A DNA stretch of 64,000 nucleotides from Acetatifactor sp. (lineage in GTDB: Bacteria > Bacillota > Clostridia > Lachnospirales > Lachnospiraceae). This document shows positions 3 through 45,531 of this stretch, one piece after another (within the stretch, counting starts at the first letter, position 1; every line of letters starts with the position of its first letter). The stretch is from NCBI GenBank assembly GCA_022511385.1, contig JAFLRN010000006.1:1-64000 (forward strand), in the 5' to 3' direction. The position numbers and the translations under genes are program-made. Under the pieces are notes generated by a model, which saw nothing but the letters and a program-made list of their open reading frames with translations, ran no database searches and was not told where the DNA came from.

Positions 3-731
3 CAGGCAAGGATAACATTATTTAATATGCTTGATTATGCGTATCAAAATGATGTAATTATTAAAAATCCTTGTAATGGGATGGTGAAATCTGATATTGG
101 AAAGCCTGTGCAGAAGAAAGAAGCACTGACATTAGAGCAACAGAAAAGATTTGTAAGGGGAATCGTGGGAAATGCATACGAGTACCAATACAGATTTTTG
201 CTTCAGACAGGGCTTAGGACAGGAGAACTTGTAGGTTTGAAATGGACAGATGTTGATTTTGATAACCGCACCCTGACGATTAGCCGCTCTATGGAATATC
301 GCCACTCTACCGAAGAATGGAGAATAGGAGAACCCAAGAGTAAATCGGGGTATCGGTCAATTCCATTGACGGATGAAGCAATAGATATGCTGCGGAAACA
401 GAAGCAGAAGAATCTTGAGATCAAAGTAATTCCAATGGAATGGTCAGAGTTTGTTTTCCTGTGCAGAAAGGGAACGCCAGTCAAAAACAGTACCTATGAC
501 ACCATGTTGTTTAAACAGTGTGACAAAATAGGGATTCCAAGATTCTCCATGCACGTACTGCGGCATACCTTTGCCACAAGATGTATCGAGGGCGGTATGA
601 AACCGAAAACTTTACAGACGATACTCGGGCACTCTAACATCGGAATTACAATGAATCTGTACGTACACACGACAGAAGATGAAAAACACAAAGAAATCGA
701 GAAAATTGCAGCCTCGCTCAAGGTGGTTTAA
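3..731 (+). CDS. Tyrosine-type site-specific integrase, C-terminal part (5' end outside window)
   Basis: Frame is open to the left edge (QARITLFN|MLDYAYQND...). Catalytic motifs visible: TGLRTGELVGLKW, HVLRHTFATR, LGHSNIGITMNLYVH. Confidence 0.9.
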   Translation, partial: QARITLFNMLDYAYQNDVIIKNPCNGMVKSDIGKPVQKKEALTLEQQKRFVRGIVGNAYEYQYRFLLQTGLRTGELVGLKWTDVDFDNRTLTISRSMEYRHSTEEWRIGEPKSKSGYRSIPLTDEAIDMLRKQKQKNLEIKVIPMEWSEFVFLCRKGTPVKNSTYDTMLFKQCDKIGIPRFSMHVLRHTFATRCIEGGMKPKTLQTILGHSNIGITMNLYVHTTEDEKHKEIEKIAASLKVV

Positions 732-16385: not shown

Positions 16386-17282
16386 ATGAAAAGGATGATA
16401 CCAATGCATTACGAACTGTATGTAGACAGTCTGTTTCTGGTCAATTTTGTGATGAATCTTTACCTTCTTATGTTGGTGAACAGAAGCGCTTTCCGCACTG
16501 CCACGCCGGGAAGATTGCTCCTGGGAGCCGCAGTGGGAGGGCTTGGCGGATTGTTGCCTTATCTGCTTCCCGGTCCCGGCCTTTTGAAAATGGGAACGGG
16601 AATCGTAGCAGGGACAGTGGGGATGATTCTTATGGCATTTCCGGTAAGGGGCTTCAGAATGTTTGTGAAGCTGTTGGAAAAGCTGCTTTTATACTCCTTC
16701 TGTATGGGAGGTGCTCTGCTCTTTCTGGTCCGCGCCATACCCGGTCTGAGGAATGTTCTTACAAGTATTTTCGGGATCATGGGTGTGGGTGGGCTGTGCT
16801 TTTTATTCTTAAGCCGCTCTCGGAAAGGCGGGGGGCAGGAAGAGAGTCTGTGCCGAGCGGTTCTGATCTGTAAGGCAGTGCAACTTGAAGTGATCGGACT
16901 GGTGGATTCGGGGAATACCCTGACAGAGCCTATCAGCGGCAAACCGGTCTGCATTGTGACGGAGCAGATATTAAGCAGTCTGAAGGGAGATCTTCCCGAC
17001 GGATACAGAGCCGTTCCTTACCATAGTATTGGAAAGAAACGAGGAATCCTGGAGGGCTATCAGCTGCCGGAGCTTAAGCTGGAGCTTAACGGTATCACAA
17101 GGACCTTTCGCCAGGTCTGGATCGCAGCAAGTCCCCAGGGAATCAGCGAACAGGATAATGTGGAGGCGGAATCCGTAAAAATGATAGTAAATCCCTTGCT
17201 CTTTCTGGAGCAAAAAAAGGGAGGGCCGCGAAGGCGGCAGAATGAGAGGATATATGATACTGAAAGTAGCATTACCAGGTAA
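16386..17282 (+). CDS. spoIIGA: Sigma-E processing peptidase SpoIIGA
   Basis: N-terminal multi-[36 protein letters not shown] protease motif, directly upstream of sigE. Confidence 0.93.
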
Positions 17283-17991
17283 GATGCAATTTAAAATGAT
17301 ACGCAGGGAAAATCTGCTCCTGCACAAAAAAGGAGAGATCCACTATATTGGCGGTGCGGAGGTGCTGCCGCCGCCCCTGGAGGTTGACAGGGAAAGCCAA
17401 GTCATCAGTGATCTGGGAACGGAGATCGATGCGGAGGCAAAGGCCATCCTCATTGAGCACAATCTGAGACTTGTGGTATACATAGCAAAGAAATTTGACA
17501 ATACCGGTGTAGGGGTGGAGGATCTGATCTCTATTGGAACCATTGGTTTGATCAAATCCATCAATACCTTTAACCCGGAAAAGAATATTAAGCTTGCCAC
17601 CTATGCCTCCAGATGCATAGAGAATGAAATTTTGATGTATCTTAGAAGAAATAATAAAACCCGGCTGGAGGTGTCCATCGACGAGCCGCTGAATGTGGAC
17701 TGGGATGGCAATGAGCTGCTGTTGTCAGATATTCTGGGAACGGATGAGGATGTGATCTACCGGAATATCGAGAATGAGGTGGAGCGGAAGCTTTTGATGG
17801 GAGCAGTCAGCAAGCTCTCAGACAGGGAAAAGACCATTATCAGGCTTAGGTTTGGACTTGGGACCAGGGACGGCCAGGAGATGACTCAGAAGGAGGTGGC
17901 ATCTCTGCTGGGAATTTCCCAGTCCTACATATCCCGGCTGGAAAAAAAGATCATGCGCCAGCTGAAGAAGGAAATGAGCAGTCATATCTAG
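17254..17991 (+). CDS. sigE: Sporulation sigma factor SigE
   Basis: Pro-sequence then [64 protein letters not shown]. Confidence 0.95.
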
Positions 17992-19116: not shown

Positions 19117-19249
19117 ATCATACTTTGAGGGAGAAAATAATGTCGCTAAGCAAAGTAGCCGCATTGTTACTGCCAGTTATTGACAAATAATTATATTTAT
19201 GTTACTCTAAATTTACTCTTTGCACTGCATATAAATCTACAGTACAAAC

Positions 19250-19354
19250 TGAACAGACCGTGACGGAACGTTATGGAGTCGGGTCACAGGAGTGACAGTG
19301 GAAGCTTACATCCACGGGACAGTAGCTGCTAATACTGGTCGTGGGTGTTTTTTT
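19250..19354 (+). ncRNA. NiCo (czcD-type) riboswitch candidate with overlapping terminator
   Basis: ACGGAA ... GGAGTGACAG ... CACGGGACAG ... GGTC pattern upstream of a CDF transporter; ACATCCACG / CGTGGGTGT stem followed by T7. Confidence 0.75.
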
Positions 19355-32323: not shown

Positions 32324-32735
32324 ATAATATTGTTACAAGAATGTAGCATCTTTGCCTCAAACAGTGCTTAATGAGAGTGAAAGCAACGTTTTGTGCGCAG
32401 CATTGTCTATTTTCGTAAAGAATTTTTCAATGCTTGTAAAGTATCAGTGATTATCATTAGTTCTTTGCTGGTACAATCCTACAATAAATTAGCAGTTTCA
32501 GAAGGGTATGTGTGTTCTGCACTGTTAAAGTTGGCAACCTCTATTTAAAATGGGGGTTGCTAACTTAGATTAATCAGACGATATATAATGCAAAGTTATG
32601 CAACGGCTAAGGAAACAGATTTCACAAGTAACAGCTCAAATAGAACCGCTTAGAAAGCAGAAAAGCATCCACATAAACAGAGTCTGATGATAAGCATGCT
32701 GCGGAATACATGCAGAGAATACAGGGCGCAGTCCG

Positions 32736-32981
32736 TATGTCGGAGCGGATAAATCACGAGTTTGGTTTCAGGACGGCACAACTTCCTTTTTTGCCGAGTT
32801 GGAAAAGTCCAGCCAGCAGCAGAGAGAGCGAATCGAAAAGGCGCACGAGGAAAAGCGCGCTGAAAAGAAAGAGCAGGAAAAACAGGCGGAACGCGATAAA
32901 CAAGCAGAGCGTACCACGGTTCAGGCAGACAGCTTAGAGGAATTGCTTGAACGCGAGAATCAAACGAAAGCATATTGGTAA
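32736..32981 (+). pseudogene. 3' remnant of a coiled-coil cytosolic protein (DUF6033-like from memory)
   Basis: DKSRVWFQDGTTSFFAELEKSSQQQRERIEKAHEEKRAEKK...EELLERENQTKAYW readable in one frame without a start or upstream body. Confidence 0.45.
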
Positions 32982-33128: not shown

Positions 33129-33788
33129 ATGGGAATCTCACATATTAGTAAAGCAAATATTGGAGCACAGTTGATTACTTCAACAAATAGCGGGGAGCCG
33201 GATTGGTCTATCATTCCGACCGCAGGAAAAAGCAGCAAATCACAGAATGAATTTGTTAATGAGATAAAAGAGCTGGCGCGGAAAGCAGCTTCAACAACAA
33301 ATAAAGCGGAATTGGATTATATCTCAAGACGAAACCTGCAATTACACGCAGAGTATTTGTCGGATGTAGCTCCCAACAGAAAGATGTTATATCAGCAGGC
33401 AAAAAATACAATAAAGAACCAAAGCGGCAACTCAAAATGCCGGGGAATTGGGGAATTAACACTACTTGACTTTTTGGAGGAAGCAGAGGGAAAGATCAGC
33501 AACCTTGCAGATAGAAAATTTGTACTGGCAGGGGGAGGTACATTGGTATGTCCTATGCTGACAGGCGGCGGGTATGGAGCGGAAATTTTTTATGGTGGAA
33601 CAATGGTATTGTCAAATACGGGTTATGGCTGGGGTTATGGAGCAACACCCGCAGAGCAAGAAAAATCAAAGGAATTTTATGAAATATACTTTAATGAATA
33701 CCGTTCCGTAAAGAATAGTGAGGGGGCAGAGTTGGCAGAGCTACCCGATTATTTAGAAGATAAGCCAATTTTTGATGAAAGGGCATAA
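33129..33788 (+). CDS. Hypothetical protein of accessory cluster
   Basis: MGISHISKANIGAQLITSTNSGEPDW...; RBS GGAGG upstream; no known family. Confidence 0.7.
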   Translation: MGISHISKANIGAQLITSTNSGEPDWSIIPTAGKSSKSQNEFVNEIKELARKAASTTNKAELDYISRRNLQLHAEYLSDVAPNRKMLYQQAKNTIKNQSGNSKCRGIGELTLLDFLEEAEGKISNLADRKFVLAGGGTLVCPMLTGGGYGAEIFYGGTMVLSNTGYGWGYGATPAEQEKSKEFYEIYFNEYRSVKNSEGAELAELPDYLEDKPIFDERA

Positions 33789-33859
33789 GAAAAAATAAAA
33801 TTAGGATACGCAAAGAAGCGAGACGTGAAATATTTTACAAAATATAGAGGGAAAGCACT

Positions 33860-34738
33860 ATGTATGAATTGATACAGGTTTCAGACAGAAGCTATTATAT
33901 TCAATGTCCTGCAAAGATAGGGCTTGTGAGGCTTAATGACACGGATGTTTGCTTAATTGACAGCGGAAATGACAAGGACGCAGGACGGAAAGTACGGCAA
34001 ATTTTGGATAGTAATAATTGGAGATTGACCGCAATTTACAACACACATTCTAACGCGGATCACATAGGTGGCAATAAATATCTGCAAGGGCAGACAGGTT
34101 GTAAGATATTTGCACCGGGCATAGAATGTGATTTCACACAGCACCCGATTTTGGAGCCGTCTTTTTTATACGGCGGTTATCCCTGCAAGGAGCTTCGGCA
34201 TAAATTTCTTATGGCGCAGGAAAGCAATGTGGAATATCTGACAAGAGAAGTTGTACCAGAGGGCTTTGAGATTATTGATTTGCCGGGACATTTCTTCGAT
34301 ATGGTGGGTTTCCGCACACCGGATGATGTGATCTACCTTGCCGATTGTCTTTCGAGCAGGGAAACACTGGATAAGTACCAGGTTGGTTTTATCTATGACG
34401 TGGAAGCTTATATAAAAACGCTTGAAATGGTAAAGACATTGAAAGCAAAGATGTTTGTACCGGCTCATGCACAAGTCACAGAGAACATTTCAGAGTTGGC
34501 ACAGTATAACATTGATAAGGTACAGGAAATTGCAGAAAGGATTGTTGCCCTCTGCAAAGAACCGGCTTACTTCGAAATGATTTTATCAAAGCTGTTTACG
34601 GAGTATGCCTTGAATATGAATTTTGAACAGTATGTGCTTGTTGGCAGCACCGTCCGTTCATATCTTGCATGGCTGAAAGATACGGGCAGGGTAAGCGCAA
34701 TATCTGAAAATAATATGCTGCTTTGGAAACAGATATAA
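33860..34738 (+). CDS. MBL-fold metallo-hydrolase
   Basis: NTHSNADHIGG motif, later H and D ligands (DLPGHFFDMVGF, YLADCLSS). Confidence 0.9.
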   Translation: MYELIQVSDRSYYIQCPAKIGLVRLNDTDVCLIDSGNDKDAGRKVRQILDSNNWRLTAIYNTHSNADHIGGNKYLQGQTGCKIFAPGIECDFTQHPILEPSFLYGGYPCKELRHKFLMAQESNVEYLTREVVPEGFEIIDLPGHFFDMVGFRTPDDVIYLADCLSSRETLDKYQVGFIYDVEAYIKTLEMVKTLKAKMFVPAHAQVTENISELAQYNIDKVQEIAERIVALCKEPAYFEMILSKLFTEYALNMNFEQYVLVGSTVRSYLAWLKDTGRVSAISENNMLLWKQI

Positions 34739-34827
34739 AAACGAATGAGCAATATACAAAGAAGCGGGTGGCATACACAATAGTTTTATTACTATAGGAC
34801 AATAGATGTATTTCGGGGGCTATAGTT

Positions 34828-35397
34828 ATGAATGTCAGCAACATAAGGGTATCATATGGGACTGAAAAAGTAAAATCTTCAAAAAATGACTGGAAACTAA
34901 CAGATACCCTTAAAGAGCAAATTATAGAATATGCAAAAGAAGATGCAAAAAGAAATGTTTATATGGGAGAAAAGTTCACATGTCTGCGTAAAAGTGAGGT
35001 AGCAAAAGTTGCTCCTGACAGGGCAGCATTGATGGCAACATTTGACCAAGCGATTGCCTTTGGCGATATGGGTGATTTGCAGAGAGTAAAAGGGGATGGT
35101 GAGCGGTGGTTATATGTTTTATTTGGAATTCCATATGAAGCAGAGTTTCAGTCCGTGGGGTTTGGTTCAGCGGTTCATGTGTATGATGAAAACGGAGATG
35201 AAATCTTGACATATACGGGAGGCGTCGGTTGGCAAGAAAAGGAGTCAAAAGCTGAAACGATTGTACATAGATCGTTAAGATTAACATATTACAACGCATG
35301 GCAGGATGCAAAAAAAGAAATCAAACAAATGGGCAGAGAGCTTGTTTCAGCTGACGGGGAAATAGTGAAGGAAAGTAAATTTGATTATAGGGCATGA
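34828..35397 (+). CDS. Hypothetical protein of accessory cluster
   Basis: 189 aa soluble ORF, co-directional; no known family. Confidence 0.7.
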   Translation: MNVSNIRVSYGTEKVKSSKNDWKLTDTLKEQIIEYAKEDAKRNVYMGEKFTCLRKSEVAKVAPDRAALMATFDQAIAFGDMGDLQRVKGDGERWLYVLFGIPYEAEFQSVGFGSAVHVYDENGDEILTYTGGVGWQEKESKAETIVHRSLRLTYYNAWQDAKKEIKQMGRELVSADGEIVKESKFDYRA

Positions 35398-35455
35398 CTT
35401 TGACAATAACAAATCAAACCCACCTGTGGGCGAAGATAGAAAAGAGGAATAGAGA

Positions 35456-36265
35456 ATGGGAATAGGTATATCAAATAAAGCACAGGCGGCACATCAATGT
35501 CAAACAGAGGCGGAAGCGATAAAGCAGAGACGTCAGGAGGCTGTTAAAGCTGATGCTTCGAGTATTTCGAGTAAGACGAATCAGCGTGATGTTTTTGAAC
35601 CTTCTTCTAATGATAAGTTTGATTATTACGGTGATTATGATGGATATGCTAATATAGCGGAGTATGCTAGTAGTTTGAGAGAAAGTATATTGTATCGTTA
35701 TTCGCATACTGTTGGCCGCCACAATGCTACATGGGTCATGGACGAAGTGGGGAATGATTTGCGTAATATGAAGGAGGAAAAAGGAGCATACAATGGCTCG
35801 GATTTGCTTAACGCATATGGCTATACTTATGCAAGACTTTATGATGAAAGCGAACAAAGATTTGAAAACGGTGATGAGCTATGGTTTGATTTAAGTGGGA
35901 AGCCGTTGACGAAGGAAGAGGCGAAGGAAAAGGAACTTGAGGAATTAAATAAGGCTTATGAAGGTGCGGTGGAATGGGCAGCCAGTTGTGCATACGTAAT
36001 GGCGGGGATTCAGAGGACGCACTGGAGTTCTATTTCTGGACAGACACAAAACTATGACAAGGCGGCACAGGAAATTCCGGAAATGAGACAGAAAGATCGG
36101 GAAGAGATGAAACGAGCATTTTATGAGGCCAGAGATAGATATATGGAACTGTATAAAGAGTGTATACAAACCGGAAATCCGCTGACACGGCAAGGGTATG
36201 TATTTGACCATAATGCTCTTCTGGGCTTTTTGGCAAAGACATGGAGCGAGGATACACATAGATAA
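35456..36265 (+). CDS. Hypothetical protein of accessory cluster
   Basis: MGIGISNKAQAAHQCQTEAEAIKQR...; soluble, Y-rich, no signal peptide. Confidence 0.7.
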   Translation: MGIGISNKAQAAHQCQTEAEAIKQRRQEAVKADASSISSKTNQRDVFEPSSNDKFDYYGDYDGYANIAEYASSLRESILYRYSHTVGRHNATWVMDEVGNDLRNMKEEKGAYNGSDLLNAYGYTYARLYDESEQRFENGDELWFDLSGKPLTKEEAKEKELEELNKAYEGAVEWAASCAYVMAGIQRTHWSSISGQTQNYDKAAQEIPEMRQKDREEMKRAFYEARDRYMELYKECIQTGNPLTRQGYVFDHNALLGFLAKTWSEDTHR

Positions 36266-36293
36266 CTATTTAATCTTATGGAGGATGAATCAA

Positions 36294-36872
36294 ATGGATA
36301 TTAATACGGCATATGGCAACAGCTATTCTGCATATACGCAGAGTGTAAAGAAAAACACATCAGAAACAGATGCTGCCGCTAAGACTTCTAAAATGTCAGA
36401 AGCGGAAGAAATGGCAGCTTTTAAAAAGGAGTTTTACGCAGATTTAGAAAAAATAACCAACCATAGAACGGTATATAGTTGGTCCGTCAACATATCAGAA
36501 AAAGCATTTGAAAATATGAAAGCTGATCCGCAGTATAGGGCAAAAATTTTATCCTTAATTCAGCGTGATGTGGGAGATTCTTACGCTCCAAGAAATTGCG
36601 CTGTTATGATCACGGTAGGAGCTGCAAGCAAGGACTACAGAGCTGATTCGTGGCCGGATTGCAACGATGAAGAATATCATGCACGTTCTCAGAACAGCTT
36701 TTATAAGAGAGACAGTGGGAAGAAAGACAGAGCGGATGAGATTAATAAGCGATATCTTGAAAAGAGAGTGCAGGCTAAAAAGCTGCAGGAAAAGCTTTTG
36801 AAAGAAGACGTTGAAAAACAGGAATTAGAACATAGCCGTCTGATGAAATCATGGTACAGTGAAAACAAATGA
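36294..36872 (+). CDS. Hypothetical protein (DUF6033-like N-terminal region, from memory)
   Basis: MDINTAYGNSYSAYTQS... NISEKAFENMKADPQYRAKILSLIQRDVGDSYAPRN...; start after GGAGG. Confidence 0.7.
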   Translation: MDINTAYGNSYSAYTQSVKKNTSETDAAAKTSKMSEAEEMAAFKKEFYADLEKITNHRTVYSWSVNISEKAFENMKADPQYRAKILSLIQRDVGDSYAPRNCAVMITVGAASKDYRADSWPDCNDEEYHARSQNSFYKRDSGKKDRADEINKRYLEKRVQAKKLQEKLLKEDVEKQELEHSRLMKSWYSENK

Positions 36873-36890
36873 CACAAGGAGTATTTCAAT

Positions 36891-37916
36891 ATGATCGGAA
36901 CCAGTAATAATATAGGGACAGACCACCAGCAGTATGCTCAGGGAGGAACAATTCTTAGGAAGACATATTCCTATAAAAATGGGAAAGGGCAGGAAGAAGA
37001 ATATTATGCAAAAGATGCTCTTGAGATTACGCATAGTCTTAGTAAAATCTCGCCTGATGTTGATAATTATGAAGAGATAAAGCAGATGCTGAAAAATAAT
37101 TTAATAAACGGAGGAAAAATCGATTATCTGGGAAGCAAATATAAGAGCGAGATATCTGAAATCATGAGCGATTATTATAGTGGGAAAATAAACCGTGATG
37201 AGGTCAAAAATATTTTTAAGGAATATTTTTATCATGCCTTCGGCAATTCTTCAGTCAATCAAAACTACGTAAAGCATTCCGCAACAAGTTTTTTGGCAGG
37301 GTTATATGAATTGTTCAGCGAAGCTAACGCCAGCAATGCGTATGTAAAGAATATGGAGGAGGGAGAGGCTTTAATGGAAGGCCATGGGCTCACCTGGAAT
37401 GGAACTTATTACTACAATGCAGACTGGTACTATGCGTGCGAAGAGATGCAGGAAATGTTTCGGGAAACAGCGAATGATCTGGCAGATGAAGTTGGCGCTG
37501 AGCATGTGGATTTTGAATATGTGGAGAAGAACACAAGATTTAAGCTGACTGGTGGAATTACCTTCAATGGTATATGGGATTGTATAAAATGGCAGATTAA
37601 CTGTGATAGAGGAATCAACAGCAGATTCCTGAATAAAGATATGGCTCCGCCCAAGGGCTTCGTATACTGCTCAACTAATTGGAACGAGAAAGCTGATCTG
37701 TATAAGGGGAAAGATCATTCTTTCATGTTATTCCTTCTGGCTGCGGCCCAAAACACTGATGAAAAGGATAGCCTGCTGTTTCATGATAAAAAGTACAGCC
37801 ACTCCAGTAAATGGGAGAAAAATGATACTTATCACAGTGCAATGGCATTCTTAAAGAATTTTAATATCCAATGGAATCGCAGATGTGACAGAATGGAATT
37901 CTTATATGTGCGATAA
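36891..37916 (+). CDS. Hypothetical protein of accessory cluster (341 aa)
   Basis: MIGTSNNIGTDHQQYAQGG...; soluble ORF 18 bp after previous gene. Confidence 0.7.
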   Translation: MIGTSNNIGTDHQQYAQGGTILRKTYSYKNGKGQEEEYYAKDALEITHSLSKISPDVDNYEEIKQMLKNNLINGGKIDYLGSKYKSEISEIMSDYYSGKINRDEVKNIFKEYFYHAFGNSSVNQNYVKHSATSFLAGLYELFSEANASNAYVKNMEEGEALMEGHGLTWNGTYYYNADWYYACEEMQEMFRETANDLADEVGAEHVDFEYVEKNTRFKLTGGITFNGIWDCIKWQINCDRGINSRFLNKDMAPPKGFVYCSTNWNEKADLYKGKDHSFMLFLLAAAQNTDEKDSLLFHDKKYSHSSKWEKNDTYHSAMAFLKNFNIQWNRRCDRMEFLYVR

Positions 37917-37993
37917 TTCACAACATAATTCATCCCTTTCACAACATTTTTCTTGCGATTCATTTCTTTTTATTCCGATATAGTATGTATAAT
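37917..37993 (+). promoter_or_regulatory. Putative LytTR operator and promoter of the two-component system
   Basis: TTCACAACAT at 37917 and 37938 (21-bp period), TATAAT at 37988 with no good -35. Confidence 0.55.
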
Positions 37994-38012
37994 AACAGCA
38001 AAGGAAGTCAAA

Positions 38013-38732
38013 ATGAAGATAGGGATATGCGATGATGAAAAAGAAATAAGAGCGATGCTCCGGGATAAAGTGCAAAGCCTCTATCCTAAAGCAGACATAA
38101 TACTTTATGCATCAGGGGAAGAACTGCTTGTGGGGGAATTGCCGGACATTCTGCTGCTGGATATTCAGATGAAAGGAAAAAGCGGAATCGAGACAGCGAA
38201 GGAGCTTCGCCGGATGGGCGGTCAGGTCATCATTATTTTTGTGACTGCAATAGAAGATTATGTATTTCAGGCGTTTGACGTGGACGCACTGCATTATCTT
38301 GTGAAACCCTTTGATAATGATAAATTGTTTGAGGTATTACATAAAGCGGCTAAACAGTTTGAGGACAGACAAAAGCCAGAAACTGCAAACAGCAAAAAAG
38401 AAAAGCCTCCCTTTCTCATTTCTTCAGGAGGAAAGCACTTTACTGTCAATTTGGATGATATTGTATATGCGGAAGTATTTGACCGAAAAGTGATCATCCA
38501 TACAATGACTGAGGATATAGAATATTACGGAAAGTTGAAAGATCTGGAGCAGCAGGCTGGTGAGGGATTTTACCGTCCCCACAGGGCATACTTGATCAAT
38601 TTTAATTTTGTCTGCAAATATGATGCCGCTGTCATTTATTTAAAAACGGGACAGGCCTTAATGGCAAAACAGAATTATCCGGGCTTTGTGAAAAGCTATT
38701 TGAGATTTATCCAGAGAAAGGAGAGGGACTAA
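38013..38732 (+). CDS. LytTR-family response regulator (AgrA-like)
   Basis: MKIGICDDEKEIRAMLRDKV receiver; C-terminal LytTR region (GEGFYRPHRAYLINFNFV). Confidence 0.93.
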   Translation: MKIGICDDEKEIRAMLRDKVQSLYPKADIILYASGEELLVGELPDILLLDIQMKGKSGIETAKELRRMGGQVIIIFVTAIEDYVFQAFDVDALHYLVKPFDNDKLFEVLHKAAKQFEDRQKPETANSKKEKPPFLISSGGKHFTVNLDDIVYAEVFDRKVIIHTMTEDIEYYGKLKDLEQQAGEGFYRPHRAYLINFNFVCKYDAAVIYLKTGQALMAKQNYPGFVKSYLRFIQRKERD

Positions 38733-40106
38733 ATGGAACTCATGGAAATCTGCTGTGCCACTGAGACATATATTTACATTATAGCTTATACCTCAATGAC
38801 GGGATACATTTTATACTATTTTGCAAAGCCGTTCATGATAAAAAAGGATAAGACTTTTTGCGTTGGAGCATCCTATATTTTCACCATGTGTATACTGGAT
38901 GTGGTGCCGGTGATGCTAAGTAATTTTGTTGCGTACAGCACCGGGATATTATTGGCTTTCCTTGTTATGTGCTGGATAGACCGCAGGAATTACCGTCAGA
39001 AAATATATATTGTGATCACATTTTTTTCTCTTCGATGGCTATCGGCATATTTGGCGAGCACACTCACGGCAAACTTGTACGGTAAAATGGTGATGACCCC
39101 ATATCTGGCAGGCCGCCCTGTCTGGCAGCTGGTTGCAACAGTAGGGACAGATATTTTGAAGTTGGCAATTATGTTTTCCGTGCTCAGGTTCAGTGTCGGA
39201 CGTATTATAAAGGCGTATACCTATAAGCGCGAGAATATGACGACCAAGGAACTGCTGATGCTGATCGTGCCCTCTGTCACAGGGATGACCGGGTATGAGA
39301 TTATGCAGTATTATCAGACTTATATAGAAACAAGTGTTCAGGAGACAGTGTCAGGCATTTATTATGTTCTGGCTCTTTTGCATTATGGAATATCCATTGT
39401 TACGATAGTTGTTGTGGCAGTTCTTTTTCATAATATTAAGGAAAATCAGGAAGGTAAACTGCAGAATGAAATGATTTCTGCACAGATAGATAACATGAAA
39501 CGCCATATCGGACAAGTCGAAAATCTATATCAGGACATACGTGGTATGAAGCACGATATGGCAAACCATATTCTTACGCTGGAGAGACTTTATGCAGCAA
39601 ACGAAGCGGAACAGGCGCAAGAATATGCCAGAGAGCTGACAACGGCTTTGGTTAATATGGCAGCGGGAGAGATCAAGAGCGGAAATCCCATAACGGATAC
39701 GATTTTGCAGGAGTGGAAAACGGAGGCGAAAAAAAGAAATATATGTTTGGAAAGCGAGTTTCATTTTCCTGCAGACTCCAATATTAATGTATTTGACCTT
39801 AGTGTCATATTGAACAATGCCTTACAGAATGCGGTGGAGAACACAGTGGGAGGGGAGGCTGCGCATATAGATGTACTGTCTTACTGCAGAAACAATGCTT
39901 ATATGATCGAAATCAGCAACAGTTTTACGGGTAGTTTGCAGTGGGATACGGAATGCGGATTGCCAATCACGTCAAAGGGGGAAACGGAAAGTCACGGATA
40001 CGGTTTGAGTAATATCCGTAAAGTGGCGCAAAAATATTTTGGTGATATGGACATTGTGTTACAAGATGAAAAATTCCTACTCAGCGTTATGCTGATAATG
40101 AACTAG
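38733..40106 (+). CDS. GHKL-domain sensor histidine kinase (AgrC-like)
   Basis: About six N-terminal TMs; IRGMKHDMANHILTLERL; VILNNALQNAVEN; HGYGLSNIRKVAQKYFGDM. Confidence 0.92.
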   Translation: MELMEICCATETYIYIIAYTSMTGYILYYFAKPFMIKKDKTFCVGASYIFTMCILDVVPVMLSNFVAYSTGILLAFLVMCWIDRRNYRQKIYIVITFFSLRWLSAYLASTLTANLYGKMVMTPYLAGRPVWQLVATVGTDILKLAIMFSVLRFSVGRIIKAYTYKRENMTTKELLMLIVPSVTGMTGYEIMQYYQTYIETSVQETVSGIYYVLALLHYGISIVTIVVVAVLFHNIKENQEGKLQNEMISAQIDNMKRHIGQVENLYQDIRGMKHDMANHILTLERLYAANEAEQAQEYARELTTALVNMAAGEIKSGNPITDTILQEWKTEAKKRNICLESEFHFPADSNINVFDLSVILNNALQNAVENTVGGEAAHIDVLSYCRNNAYMIEISNSFTGSLQWDTECGLPITSKGETESHGYGLSNIRKVAQKYFGDMDIVLQDEKFLLSVMLIMN

Positions 40107-40155
40107 AAAATGCCTCTTGTGCGGATGAAACGATTCGGCATAAGAGGCATTTTGG
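40107..40155 (+). terminator. Intrinsic terminator-like hairpin after kinase gene
   Basis: AAAATGCCTCTTGTGC ... GCATAAGAGGCATTTT. Confidence 0.7.
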
Positions 40156-40288
40156 TTTACAACAGAAAAAAGGCTGTTCACTGCAAAACGCTTTAATAGG
40201 AAATCCGGTCTTTCGATAAAAAATTCAGAAGACAAAAACCGGTATTGAGAAACGGACTTCAAATCAACGAGATCAAGGAGGAAAAGAA

Positions 40289-41035
40289 ATGACTATTAAC
40301 GGCATGAATGGAGTGAACGCACAGGCAGGGCAGATGAGAATGAATCAGGCAGCGGATTCTTATAGCAGGAACCTGCAGAAACAGATCGCTGATGCGCAAA
40401 AACAGCTGCGGGAACTGTCTTCCAATGAGGGCTTATCATTGGAAGAGAAAATGAAAAAGAGGCAGGAGATACAGCAGCATATCAGTGACCTGAATATGCA
40501 GCTAAGGCAGCACCAGATGGAGCAGCGCAGAGAGGCTATGAATAATGCGAAGGAACAGCAGGATGAAGGTTCTTCCATGGATGGCATGCTGGGTGGAACA
40601 AGCAAGGCAGAAAGCAAAAGCACAGGGCTTTCACAGGCAAGCATGACAGCAATGATTTCTGCGGGCAGTTCCATAAAACAGGCAAAAGTACAGGGCGGCA
40701 TCGCAACAAAACTGGATGGGAGAGCAGGAGTGCTGGAATCTGAAATTAAGCTGGATAAAGTCAGGGGAGGGGATACGCAGGCAAAAGAAGTAGAACTGGC
40801 AGAGGTCGAACGGAAAGCGCAGACAGCGACTTCATCACAACTCTCCACGCTGGCGGACGCAAGTAAGGCTATGGAGGCAGCCGCAAAGGCAGACAGCAAG
40901 TCGGAAAAGACCGACAACGAAGATGCAAAGACTGTAGATGCGCAGGAAAAAGATGCAAACGAAAACAGGTACGAACCAGAGAGCGAAAAAGCACCGCAGC
41001 CGGCAGTGTATGCATCCGTGGATATTCGCTTGTAG
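40289..41035 (+). CDS. FlxA-like coiled-coil protein
   Basis: LQKQIADAQKQLRELSSNEGLSLEEKMKKRQEIQQHISDLNMQLRQHQMEQRRE; FlxA-like pattern. Confidence 0.75.
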   Translation: MTINGMNGVNAQAGQMRMNQAADSYSRNLQKQIADAQKQLRELSSNEGLSLEEKMKKRQEIQQHISDLNMQLRQHQMEQRREAMNNAKEQQDEGSSMDGMLGGTSKAESKSTGLSQASMTAMISAGSSIKQAKVQGGIATKLDGRAGVLESEIKLDKVRGGDTQAKEVELAEVERKAQTATSSQLSTLADASKAMEAAAKADSKSEKTDNEDAKTVDAQEKDANENRYEPESEKAPQPAVYASVDIRL

Positions 41036-41047
41036 GAGGTGACACAT

Positions 41048-41866
41048 ATGTCAGGAATTAATTTTAATGATTATGCAACCTATGATGCCGGTTACGATTT
41101 TTCTTCTCTTCTGGGTGGAACGACCAATTCTTCAGGCAACCTGCTTTCAGACTATGCTTCCATCAAGAACGGAAGTTACGGAAAGTTGATGAAAGCATAT
41201 TATGCAAAAATGGATGCAGAAAACGTATCAGCAACGGGAGATTCTACGAAAAGGCTGACACTCATGAAGTCAAACGCAGATTCTTTGAAGAAGTCTGCGG
41301 ATGTCTTGAATAATGCTTCGCTATGGGAAAAAAAGAAAATTAAGACAACGGATGAAGAAACAGGGGAAGAGGTCGAGGTAGAGGATTATGATTGGAATGC
41401 AATCACGAAAGCGGTAAAATCCTTTATCGAGGATTATAACTCTGTTGTGGAGCAAGCAGGCGATTCCGATACGAAAAATGTGCTCCGCAATGCGGCGTGG
41501 ATGACCGGCATGACAGATAAAGCTCAAAATCTGCTCTCACAGGTAGGGATCACTATCGGAAAAGGCAACAAGCTGGAACTGGATGAAGATGCTTTAAAGA
41601 AGGCCAATATCGCTACTTTGAAATCTCTGTTTACAGGATACGGTTCATTTGCTGATAGAATCGCCCAAAAAGCAGGCAGTATCAGTAGTGCTGCGACTAA
41701 TGCAGCAGCAAGGGATAAGGGAGGAACATATACAAGAAACGGAAGTTATTCTGATACCCTTTCAAAAGTGTTATCCGGTATTGTGGATGCCAAAGTGGGG
41801 GATGATTACAGCAGTTCGGTTACAACGTCAAAGTCTGCGTCTGGCAAACAGGATCAGGAAGCGTAA
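41048..41866 (+). CDS. Protein with flagellar cap (FliD) C-terminal-like region
   Basis: ITKAVKSFIEDYNSVVEQAG...KGNKLELDEDALKKANIATLKSLFTGYGSFADRIAQKAGSISS resembles FliD_C. Confidence 0.6.
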   Translation: MSGINFNDYATYDAGYDFSSLLGGTTNSSGNLLSDYASIKNGSYGKLMKAYYAKMDAENVSATGDSTKRLTLMKSNADSLKKSADVLNNASLWEKKKIKTTDEETGEEVEVEDYDWNAITKAVKSFIEDYNSVVEQAGDSDTKNVLRNAAWMTGMTDKAQNLLSQVGITIGKGNKLELDEDALKKANIATLKSLFTGYGSFADRIAQKAGSISSAATNAAARDKGGTYTRNGSYSDTLSKVLSGIVDAKVGDDYSSSVTTSKSASGKQDQEA

Positions 41867-41917
41867 ATGCTAAATTTGAAAAAAATATAAGCGATATGCA
41901 AAGAAGCGGATGGCATG

Positions 41918-44472: not shown

Positions 44473-44499
44473 AATTGGCGGGGAGTCTCCCCGCCAATT
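44473..44499. terminator. Bidirectional terminator-type palindrome
   Basis: AATTGGCGGGGA-gtc-TCCCCGCCAATT. Confidence 0.85.
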
Positions 44500-44587
44500 A
44501 GGTTGGATCCGGGTCTATCGACCAGGCCAATATTATTACACATGCGTAAATCAGATTCAGTATCTGCCATGAGTAAACAACTACATT

Positions 44588-45367
44588 TTACGCCGTCAAA
44601 TAAGTCCGCATCGTCCTAAGTGCATTCTTCTCCAGCCTCGACACCTGGGCCTGTGAAATGCCGATGGATTCCGCTACCTCCATCTGGGTCTTGCCCTCAA
44701 AGAACCGCAGTGAGATGATTTCATGTTCCCTGGCATTCAGCTTCTTCATAGCTTCACTCAAGGACAGATGCTCCACCCAGGTCTCCTCTTTGTTCTTCTT
44801 ATCGCTGATCTGGTCCATTACATACAGTGTATCCCCACCGTCCGTGAAGATGGGTTCGTAGAGACTCATAGGATTCTGGATTGCATCGAGAGCATAGGCA
44901 ATGTCCTCCTTGGCGATGCCGATTTCACCCGCAATCTCTTCAATGGTCGGCTCTTTCAAATTTTTTCTTGTCAGGTTTTCTCTGGCATAGATCGCCTTAT
45001 ATGCCGTATCCTTCAACGACCTGGACACCCGGATGCTGCTGTTATCCCGCAAAAACCTCCGAATTTCGCCAATGATCATCGGAACAGCATAAGTGGAAAA
45101 CTTCACATTCAGGGAGGAGTCAAAATTATCAATGGCTTTGATGAGCCCGATGCAGCCGATCTGGAACAGGTCGTCCACATTTTCGTTGCTGGAGGCGAAG
45201 CGCTTGATGACGCTTAAGACAAGCCTCAGGTTTCCTTCGATGTATTCTTCTCTGGCTTTTGTATCGCCCTCCCCGATTCTCTGGAAGAGGGCTTCCTTTT
45301 CCTCGGCCTTCAGCAGAGGGAGCTTTGAGGTATTTACCCCGCAGATTTCTACCTTTCCCTGTGTCAT
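44588..45367 (-). CDS. sigG: Sporulation sigma factor SigG
   Basis: KVEICGVNTSKLPLLKAEEKEALF N-terminus characteristic of SigG; regions 2-4 intact; AGAGGAG RBS before MTQGK. Confidence 0.93.
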   Translation of the reverse strand: MTQGKVEICGVNTSKLPLLKAEEKEALFQRIGEGDTKAREEYIEGNLRLVLSVIKRFASSNENVDDLFQIGCIGLIKAIDNFDSSLNVKFSTYAVPMIIGEIRRFLRDNSSIRVSRSLKDTAYKAIYARENLTRKNLKEPTIEEIAGEIGIAKEDIAYALDAIQNPMSLYEPIFTDGGDTLYVMDQISDKKNKEETWVEHLSLSEAMKKLNAREHEIISLRFFEGKTQMEVAESIGISQAQVSRLEKNALRTMRTYLTA

Positions 45368-45531
45368 GTCTCCTCTTTCCGCGGGCACAACTTTCGCCTG
45401 CTGTTTCTTTTTGTTACTGATCGATGGAACAAATCGTAACTCTTTTTCTCACAGTGGTAGTATGTGCCTGAAGAGCAAAATTATTCCGCAGTTTTGAGAA
45501 TCGTTAGTGAAAAATGGCGGTTTTTTGTAAT

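What the first reader, a model, noticed from the sequence alone, without database searches (positions are those of the whole stretch)
33129..41866. Candidate undescribed system: co-directional cluster of signal-peptide-less proteins around an AgrC/LytTR two-component system
Seen: at least nine plus-strand ORFs in about 8.7 kb. They are six uncharacterised soluble proteins or decayed relatives, an MBL-fold hydrolase, a LytTR regulator, a six-TM GHKL kinase, a FlxA-like coiled coil and a FliD-C-like protein. Several N-termini are short and polar with I/N/Y residues and no signal peptide (MGISHISKANIG, MGIGISNKAQAA, MDINTAYGNSYSAY, MIGTSNNIGTD, MTINGMNGVNAQAG, MSGINFNDYATYDAGYD). This resembles flagellin or hook-associated N-termini used for flagellar export. 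No flagellar structural gene is in the window. Inference: a regulated set of effectors or accessory proteins, perhaps exported by the flagellar apparatus or a signal-peptide-independent route.
Basis: partly seen in the sequence, partly recalled or inferred. Interest (0 to 1): 0.82.

Follow-up and report, generated by a model that had tools for sequence, protein, structure and literature searches.

The report
Flagella-linked regulon of FliK-tailed proteins
Motile gut Lachnospiraceae carry gene clusters of uncharacterised proteins without signal peptides, apparently switched on by a dedicated sensor pair together with the flagellar sigma factor, and many end in the same five-residue tail as the flagellar switch protein FliK, which suggests an overlooked set of proteins that work at, or leave through, the flagellar export machine.

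Summary
In detail: ten co-directional plus-strand genes at 33129-41866. Of the six unnamed proteins, orf1 and orf3 are one family, orf4 a second, orf5 a divergent DUF6033 member, orf6 a third. RR-HK-FlxA-(FliD_C) is a module conserved across Lachnospiraceae. Four lines tie the cluster to flagella. (1) In 199 family genomes DUF6033 (66/66) and FlxA (25/25) occur only with FlhA (P=2e-23, 1e-7); a Cas1 control shows no association. (2) RR, FlxA and, otherwise, only proteins of this class share a composite promoter: LytTR-type direct repeat TTCAC-N16-TTCAC about 31 nt before the sigma-28 box CCGATA, with a degraded -35. (3) N-termini resemble known flagellar substrates (modest signal). (4) FlxA, DUF6033, DUF3879 and orf1/orf3 proteins share a C-terminal tail ΦDΦ[KRST]Φ also found on FliK of the same bacteria (E. 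coli FliK: VDIFA); published work proposes that FliK's last five residues engage FlhB and flip export specificity. Best explanation: a LytTR-controlled sigma-28 sub-regulon whose products are flagellar export clients or export-gate regulators. The regulatory link rests on strong sequence evidence; secretion is inferred, not shown. The metallo-beta-lactamase gene is probably a bystander.

The parts
32690..32981 (+). frameshifted remnant (pseudogene) of a DUF6033 gene, upstream neighbour of orf1
   Evidence: PF19498 match 2.2e-13 at 32769-32972; homologous segments split over two reading frames
33129..33788 (+). orf1, 219 aa, orf1/orf3 family; ends ...PIFDERA (relaxed FliK-type tail)
   Evidence: relatives in G204 and G159 and, partial, on a Lachnospira eligens megaplasmid
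33860..34738 (+). MBL-fold hydrolase (Lactamase_B); probably a bystander
   Evidence: PF00753 1.7e-16; not seen in the cluster anywhere else
34828..35397 (+). orf3, 189 aa, orf1/orf3 family; ends ...SKFDYRA (FliK-type tail)
   Evidence: relative L274:16817 has the composite promoter and ends FDVKA
35456..36265 (+). orf4, 269 aa, new family; several relatives (not orf4 itself) carry a FlgM-like [D]xVxISxEG motif
36294..36872 (+). orf5, 192 aa, divergent DUF6033-superfamily protein
   Evidence: HHalign 99.9-100% to DUF6033 profiles; AF2 mean pLDDT 75.5; no PDB fold match
36891..37916 (+). orf6, 341 aa, family seen only in similar clusters
   Evidence: relatives next to orf1/DUF6033/DUF3879 genes in L037 and L116
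37917..37981 (+). composite promoter of the TCS: direct repeat TTCACAACAT (37917, 37938; 21-bp period) and sigma-28-type -10 box CCGATAT (37975-37981)
38013..38732 (+). LytTR response regulator
38733..40106 (+). AgrC-type GHKL sensor kinase (MKHDM H-box)
   Evidence: sequence
40156..40219 (+). degenerate copy of the composite promoter in front of FlxA (TTTACAACAG-N11-TTCACTGCAA ... TCGATA)
   Evidence: 4 mismatches to the 7+7+6-base scoring consensus; strict copies in front of FlxA in L255, L278, L286, L300
40289..41035 (+). FlxA-like coiled-coil protein, 248 aa; ends ...YASVDIRL (FliK-type tail)
   Evidence: PF14282 1.4e-18
41048..41866 (+). FliD_C-like protein, 272 aa, FliD D1-type core without the rest of FliD
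   Evidence: PF07195 5e-8; AF2 core 64-223; the six best PDB fold matches are all FliD

Best explanation
The cluster is one instance of a widespread, undescribed regulon of flagellate Lachnospiraceae. An AgrC/LytTR two-component pair activates its own operon, flxA-fliD_C and, in other genomes, dozens of small signal-less proteins from promoters read by the flagellar sigma factor (sigma-28), the LytTR repeat standing in for the missing -35 box. The products are then made only once the basal body is finished and sigma-28 is free. They most likely engage the flagellar type III export gate: N-termini of the late-substrate type, and in several families a FliK-type C-terminal pentapeptide that could touch the FlhB C-terminal domain. 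They would be exported as accessory or effector proteins, or act at the gate as regulators. Shown by sequence: gene order, restriction to FlhA genomes, promoter architecture, shared tail. Inferred: LytTR binding, sigma-28 use, FlhB contact, export. The identity of the signal and the purpose of the cargo are open.
For: Restriction to flagellates: FlhA in 110/199 genomes; DUF6033 66/66 FlhA+ (P=2e-23), FlxA 25/25 (P=1e-7), DUF4885 6/6, DUF3879 13/14, orf4 family 9/10; Cas1 control 46 vs 42 (P=0.48). Module RR-HK-FlxA-FliD_C in named genera. Composite promoter with <=2 mismatches upstream of 37/75 flxA and 32/55 RR genes, 0/375 and 0/275 shuffles, 16/948 other genes; of 2868 genes scanned, the 92 with <=3 mismatches are 36 RR, 33 FlxA and 23 others that are all signal-less cluster-type proteins. 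200-genome scan: 26 matches vs 5 for the reversed pattern, with 11 lying just upstream of RR, DUF6033-type or FliD_C genes. -35 degraded in composite sites (TAAA within 1 mismatch 6/37) but kept in lone DUF6033/FliD_C sigma-28 promoters (27/36), P=4e-7. Consensus CCGATAT for the family's sigma-28: PMC3720852. N-terminal composition classifier trained on known flagellar substrates: AUC 0.87. C-terminal tail: 136/270 tail-checked cluster proteins of several unrelated families vs 14/2215 others; FliK 7/15 strict (10/15 with D at position -4) vs 0/288 other flagellar-locus ORFs; E. coli FliK ends VDIFA. FliK's last five residues proposed to contact FlhB: PMC13344023. FliS-type chaperone gene inside one such cluster (L132).
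Against: No direct evidence of secretion or of DNA binding. orf1-orf6 of this window do not themselves have the composite promoter and a neighbouring DUF6033 copy is dead, so this copy may be partly decayed. orf4, orf5, orf6 and FliD_C lack the tail. The N-terminal signal is modest (an internal-segment control already gives AUC 0.67; FlgM-profile hits are individually weak). Only 5 of 61 congeneric genomes carry a close flxA-fliD_C module with HK and orf1 is very rare (1 in 199 other genomes). Tail-bearing proteins lack FliK's T3S4 domain, which FliK needs for switching. Loci share ancestry, so P-values overstate independence.
Confidence: 0.6

Rival explanations
1. The proteins are cytosolic regulators or chaperones of flagellar export or of late gene expression (anti-sigma, chaperone or switch modulators) that touch FlhB or FlhA but are not secreted.
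For: FliK-type tail without export proof; FliS-like gene adjacent in L132; coiled-coil and highly charged C-terminal helices in FlxA and DUF6033; sigma-28 control.
Against: S/T/N/G-rich, charge-poor N-termini of the exported-substrate type; large lineage-variable repertoire is more like cargo than like core regulators.
Confidence: 0.25
2. Structural or surface accessory proteins of the filament: FliD_C and FlxA decorate or cap flagella and the others are filament-lumen or surface components.
For: FliD D1-like core in FliD_C; sigma-28 promoters as for filament genes.
Against: FliD_C lacks FliD D2/D3 and FliD_N; clusters lie away from the filament operons and are accessory.
Confidence: 0.15
3. 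The C-terminal tail is a ligand of a PDZ-type protease or another degradation tag, and the cluster is linked to flagella only through sigma-28.
For: Hydrophobic C-termini are recognised by PDZ proteases (general knowledge); a second conserved C-terminal ending EN[ML]FA[ML]ASLM exists in the same promoter-defined set.
Against: Same tail on FliK of the same genomes and on E. coli FliK, and on none of 288 other flagellar-locus ORFs.
Confidence: 0.1
4. A mobile or decaying island of unrelated hypothetical genes (phage, plasmid or defence cargo) caught next to a TCS.
For: Pseudogenes in the window and in L. eligens; 99.9% identical 839-nt stretch between genera G159 and G008; serine-recombinase-like ORF beside the G204 cluster (identified by eye).
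Against: No PADLOC hits, no convincing phage families, no phage match for FlxA; conserved promoter, order and flagella restriction.
Confidence: 0.05

Closest known systems
Flagellar sigma-28 (FliA/SigD) class 3 regulon of Lachnospiraceae (PMC3720852)
   Same: CCGATAT -10 box; restriction to flagellates; lone DUF6033 and FliD_C genes with TAAA-N-CCGATA promoters
   Different: here the -35 is replaced by a LytTR repeat, so a dedicated two-component system gates a sub-regulon
FliK, hook-length ruler and export specificity switch
   Same: C-terminal pentapeptide ΦDΦxΦ
   Different: no T3S4 (Flg_hook) domain found; unrelated bodies; many genes per genome
FlgM and other late flagellar substrates
   Same: MxI..Y N-terminus, S/T/K-rich linker and, in the orf4 family, a [D]xVxISxEG motif
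   Different: profile matches are weak; no conserved sigma-binding region
FliD filament cap
   Same: FliD_C domain and D1-like fold in the 41048-41866 protein
   Different: lacks FliD_N, D2 and D3; 272 aa; accessory gene beside a TCS
agr/LytTR quorum-sensing systems
   Same: GHKL kinase plus LytTR regulator, direct-repeat binding-site architecture
   Different: no AgrB-like gene nearby; regulates sigma-28-type promoters
Non-flagellar proteins secreted by the flagellar system (e.g. Campylobacter, PMC5223770)
   Same: proposed route: export through the flagellar apparatus without a signal peptide
   Different: Gram-positive commensals, co-clustered families with their own TCS and a shared C-terminal tail; secretion untested

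Membership tests
Flagellar sigma-28 regulon | CCGATA(T) -10 box upstream | tested here: met
   RR 37975-37981; lone DUF6033 22/39 vs 65/1083 other genes
Flagellar sigma-28 regulon | TAAA -35 box 14-17 nt upstream | tested here: not met
   degraded in composite promoters (6/37 within 1 mismatch), kept in lone ones (27/36)
Flagellar sigma-28 regulon | dependence on fliA | not testable with these tools
   needs a mutant or transcriptome
Flagellar export substrate | occurs only with flagellar export genes | tested here: met
Flagellar export substrate | export lost in export-apparatus mutants | not testable with these tools
   needs secretome
Flagellar export substrate | substrate-type N-terminus, no signal peptide | tested here: inconclusive
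   AUC 0.87 vs cytosolic N-termini, internal control 0.67; no signal peptide
FliK | C-terminal five residues ΦDΦxΦ | tested here: met
   FlxA, DUF6033, DUF3879, orf1/orf3 families
FliK | T3S4 / Flg_hook domain | tested here: not met
   no such Pfam hit in the cluster proteins scanned
FliD | FliD_C domain and D1 fold | tested here: met
   PF07195 5e-8; FliD is the top fold match, E 0.03-0.2, prob 0.84-1.0
FliD | FliD_N and D2/D3 domains | tested here: not met
   272 aa, disordered ends, no FliD_N hit
FlxA-like (PF14282) | Pfam model above cut-off | tested here: met
   67.3 bits vs cut-off 26.3
DUF6033 (PF19498) | Pfam match of orf5 | tested here: inconclusive
   no direct Pfam hit but HHalign 99.9-100% to DUF6033 profiles
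agr quorum sensing | LytTR regulator with GHKL kinase | tested here: met
agr quorum sensing | adjacent AgrB | tested here: not met
   no AgrB hit among the window ORFs scanned around the cluster; AgrD-size peptides not tested

The most novel reading that the evidence does not exclude
Commensal Lachnospiraceae possess a dedicated, environmentally gated secretion programme that reuses the flagellar export gate: a LytTR/sigma-28 regulon of many unrelated cargo proteins that share a FliK-type C-terminal FlhB-engaging tag, i.e. a substrate class of flagellar type III export not recognised before.
Probability: 0.38. Interest if true: 0.92.

Novelty: new variant of a known kind. Interest (0 to 1): 0.8.

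Why it matters
Flagellate Lachnospiraceae (Roseburia, Lachnospira, Eubacterium and relatives) are abundant gut bacteria, and the only published function of their flagellar apparatus known to me is motility and flagellin signalling. A regulon of up to dozens of co-regulated proteins bearing the tail of the export switch would mean either a second use of the flagellar machine (delivery of non-flagellar proteins in commensals) or a new layer of control of the export switch. It also joins DUF6033, DUF3879, DUF4885, FlxA-like and FliD_C proteins, which have no function in the papers searched, into one testable hypothesis, and gives a promoter motif and a C-terminal motif by which members can be found.

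Tried and rejected
Defence island: no PADLOC hit. Phage origin: only weak PHROG hits, no phage match for FlxA. A plain TAAA-N-CCGATA promoter inside the cluster: none. Repeat CAAAGAAGCGGRTGGCAT near 34757 and 41899 as a general element: seen in no locus from another genome. Genome-contig scan with orf4 alone: nothing. FlgM-linker motif as a general mark of the cluster: not enriched (2/130 vs 9/802), although it recurs in the orf4 family. A solved relative of DUF4885, DUF6033 or FliD_C by sequence: none. Fold of orf5/DUF6033: no PDB match.
Full report
OBSERVATION. orf1, orf3, orf4 and orf5 have no significant Pfam or NCBIfam match; orf6 has a marginal AF0941-like hit. None of orf1-6, FlxA or FliD_C has a signal-peptide-like stretch. 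The host genome has flagella-type FlhA, FlhB, FlgK, FlgL, FliD and FlgM genes elsewhere.

WHAT THE UNKNOWN PROTEINS ARE. Profile searches over the fetched loci and HHalign show that orf1 and orf3 are one family (99.8%), orf4 belongs to a second family (100% to a protein of genome G204), orf5 is a divergent DUF6033 protein (99.9-100%), and orf6 has relatives only in similar clusters. A dead DUF6033 copy lies at about 32690-32981. In the complete genome G204 the same TCS-FlxA-FliD_C core is flanked by orf6, orf1, DUF6033, orf1/3-type, DUF4885, DUF6033 and DUF3879 genes, and orf3 and a second AgrC/LytTR pair follow. The cluster in the window is therefore one of many variable assemblies of the same protein class.

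THE CONSERVED CORE. A genome-contig scan with a FlxA alignment gave 268 relatives; of the 80 loci kept, 63 have the kinase, 60 the regulator and 45 FliD_C, nearly always in the order RR-HK-FlxA-FliD_C. Named carriers include Roseburia faecis, Eubacterium plexicaudatum, Petralouisia muris, Lachnospira multipara, Butyribacter intestini and Acetivibrio ethanolgignens. FliD_C folds (AF2, residues 64-223 confident) like the FliD D1 region: the six best PDB matches are FliD, with modest E-values of 0.03-0.2 but probabilities of 0.84-1.0.

FLAGELLA RESTRICTION. In one draw of 199 family genomes besides the window's own (about one per genus), FlhA is present in 110. DUF6033 occurs in 66, all with FlhA (Fisher P=2e-23); FlxA in 25, all with FlhA (P=1e-7); DUF4885 in 6, all with FlhA; DUF3879 in 14, 13 with FlhA; the orf4 family in 10, 9 with FlhA. 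The single exception, G159, has these genes on contigs of 1.8 and 4.7 kb; the latter is 99.9% identical over 839 nt to a flagellate of another genus, so it is recent transfer or mis-binning. The control gene cas1 shows no association (46 of 110 with FlhA, 42 of 89 without; P=0.48).

REGULATION. In front of the window's RR a direct repeat TTCACAACAT (37917, 37938; 21-bp period, the spacing expected of LytTR/AgrA sites from general knowledge) is followed by CCGATAT at 37975, the sigma-28 -10 box reported for this family (PMC3720852). The same architecture stands in front of other RR genes, flxA genes, DUF6033-type genes and a FliD_C gene. Counting TTCAC-(15..17)-TTCAC-(27..34)-CCGATA with at most two mismatches: 37/75 flxA and 32/55 RR upstream regions, none of 375 and 275 mononucleotide shuffles, 16/948 other genes; spacing 16/31 dominates. 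Scanning 2868 genes for the sharper form gives 92 at <=3 mismatches: 36 RR, 33 FlxA, and 23 others, every one of them a signal-less protein of this class, including an orf3 homologue. Across 200 whole genomes the strict pattern occurs 26 times against 5 for the reversed pattern, and 11 of the 26 sit directly upstream of RR, DUF6033-type or FliD_C genes; none was seen upstream of core flagellar genes. In composite sites the TAAA -35 is lost (6/37 within one mismatch) while lone DUF6033/FliD_C promoters keep it (27/36; P=4e-7). The simplest reading is that the regulator replaces the -35 contact and activates sigma-28 RNA polymerase. In this window RR has a perfect site, FlxA a degenerate one, and orf1-orf6 none.

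ENDS OF THE PROTEINS. A composition classifier trained only on known flagellar substrates (FlgM, FlgK, FlgL, FliD, FlgF/G, FlaG) separates cluster N-termini from cytosolic ones with AUC 0.87; an internal segment gives 0.67, so part of the signal is general composition. A FlgM N-terminal profile weakly favours cluster proteins (9/130 vs 5/802 at E<=1, and by inspection the five are themselves cluster or DUF6033 loci). More striking, an alignment of DUF6033 proteins exposed a shared C-terminal tail. The pattern [FLIV]-D-[FLIVMYA]-[KRSTG]-[AILVM]-COOH ends 136 of 270 proteins of the FlxA, DUF6033, DUF3879, DUF4885, orf1, orf3 and orf4 families (FlxA 70/81, DUF6033 51/130, DUF3879 10/22, orf3 family 5/8, the others none) but 14 of 2215 other ORFs, most of which look like unassigned cluster proteins; inside proteins it occurs at 0.03-0.07% of positions. 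In the window it ends orf3 (FDYRA) and FlxA (VDIRL), with a relaxed form on orf1 (FDERA); the genome's other DUF6033 gene ends FDYTI. FliK of the same family ends the same way (VDYTA, IDYSA, MDYRA, VDMTV, MDVTI): 7/15 strict, 10/15 with D at position -4, against 0/288 other ORFs of the flagellar loci. E. coli K-12 FliK ends VDIFA. A 2026 study (PMC13344023) proposes that the last five residues of FliK interact with the FlhB C-terminal domain to flip the export specificity switch. Relaxing the fourth residue, 12 of the 23 promoter-defined proteins carry the tail (counted by eye), which links two independently defined marks.

MECHANISM. Shown from sequence: conserved module, flagella restriction, composite promoter, shared tail. 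Inferred: (i) the kinase senses an unknown signal and the phosphorylated regulator binds the repeat; (ii) sigma-28 polymerase, free only after hook completion, transcribes its operon, flxA-fliD_C and tailed proteins; (iii) the products go to the flagellar export gate, where the tail may touch FlhB as FliK's does; (iv) they are exported, or they tune the gate. I put about 0.6 on the export-gate model as stated, about 0.38 on a true tagged cargo class, and higher (about 0.85) on membership of the flagellar regulon.

LIMITS. All evidence is computational. Loci are related by descent, so P-values overstate independence, although one genome per genus was used for co-occurrence. The shuffles keep mononucleotide content only. 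ORF starts were chosen mechanically. The tail is absent from orf4, orf5, orf6 and FliD_C, and this window's upstream half may be decaying. The MBL gene has no link to the class elsewhere.

Noticed in passing
L213:9323-10180 (own genome, contig C77); L223:9606-10508; also L221, L222, L224: Stand-alone proteins fusing an XRE-type HTH to a domain matching the FlhA cytoplasmic region (PF00771 up to 7e-29 with HTH_3 9e-17), in L223 directly beside a FliD_C gene: possible transcription factors that sense export clients.
   Followed up: partly
L261, L270, L274, L279, L280, L292, L294, L295, L309: A second conserved C-terminal ending, EN[ML]FA[ML]ASLM (L309: EQAFALASLM), on proteins with the composite promoter.
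   Followed up: no
L132:5968-6447: FliS-like chaperone gene (PF02561, 2.7e-14) next to DUF6033 and orf5-like genes.
   Followed up: no
window 34757-34774 and 41899-41916 (weaker form near 33810): Repeat CAAAGAAGCGGRTGGCAT after the MBL gene and after FliD_C; not found in loci from other genomes.
   Followed up: partly
L314 (G159 contig C81) vs L315 (G008 contig C10): 99.9% identity over 839 nt of cluster DNA between two genera: recent transfer or mis-binned contig.
   Followed up: partly
L344 (Lachnospira eligens megaplasmid NZ_CP085937.1): orf3 homologue ending NFDMKA plus broken orf1-like fragments on a 629-kb plasmid.
   Followed up: partly
window 19239-19324: NiCo riboswitch in front of a cation-efflux gene.
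   Followed up: no
window 44480-44529 (-): DUF3800-XI RNA motif beside a sigma-factor gene at 44588-45388.
   Followed up: no
window 17242-17991 and 44588-45388: A SpoIIGA-sigma factor pair (16386-17991) and a second sporulation-type sigma factor lie either side of the region holding the cluster.
   Followed up: no
search control: Bacillus subtilis has a DUF4885 protein; whether it is SigD-controlled was not checked.
   Followed up: no
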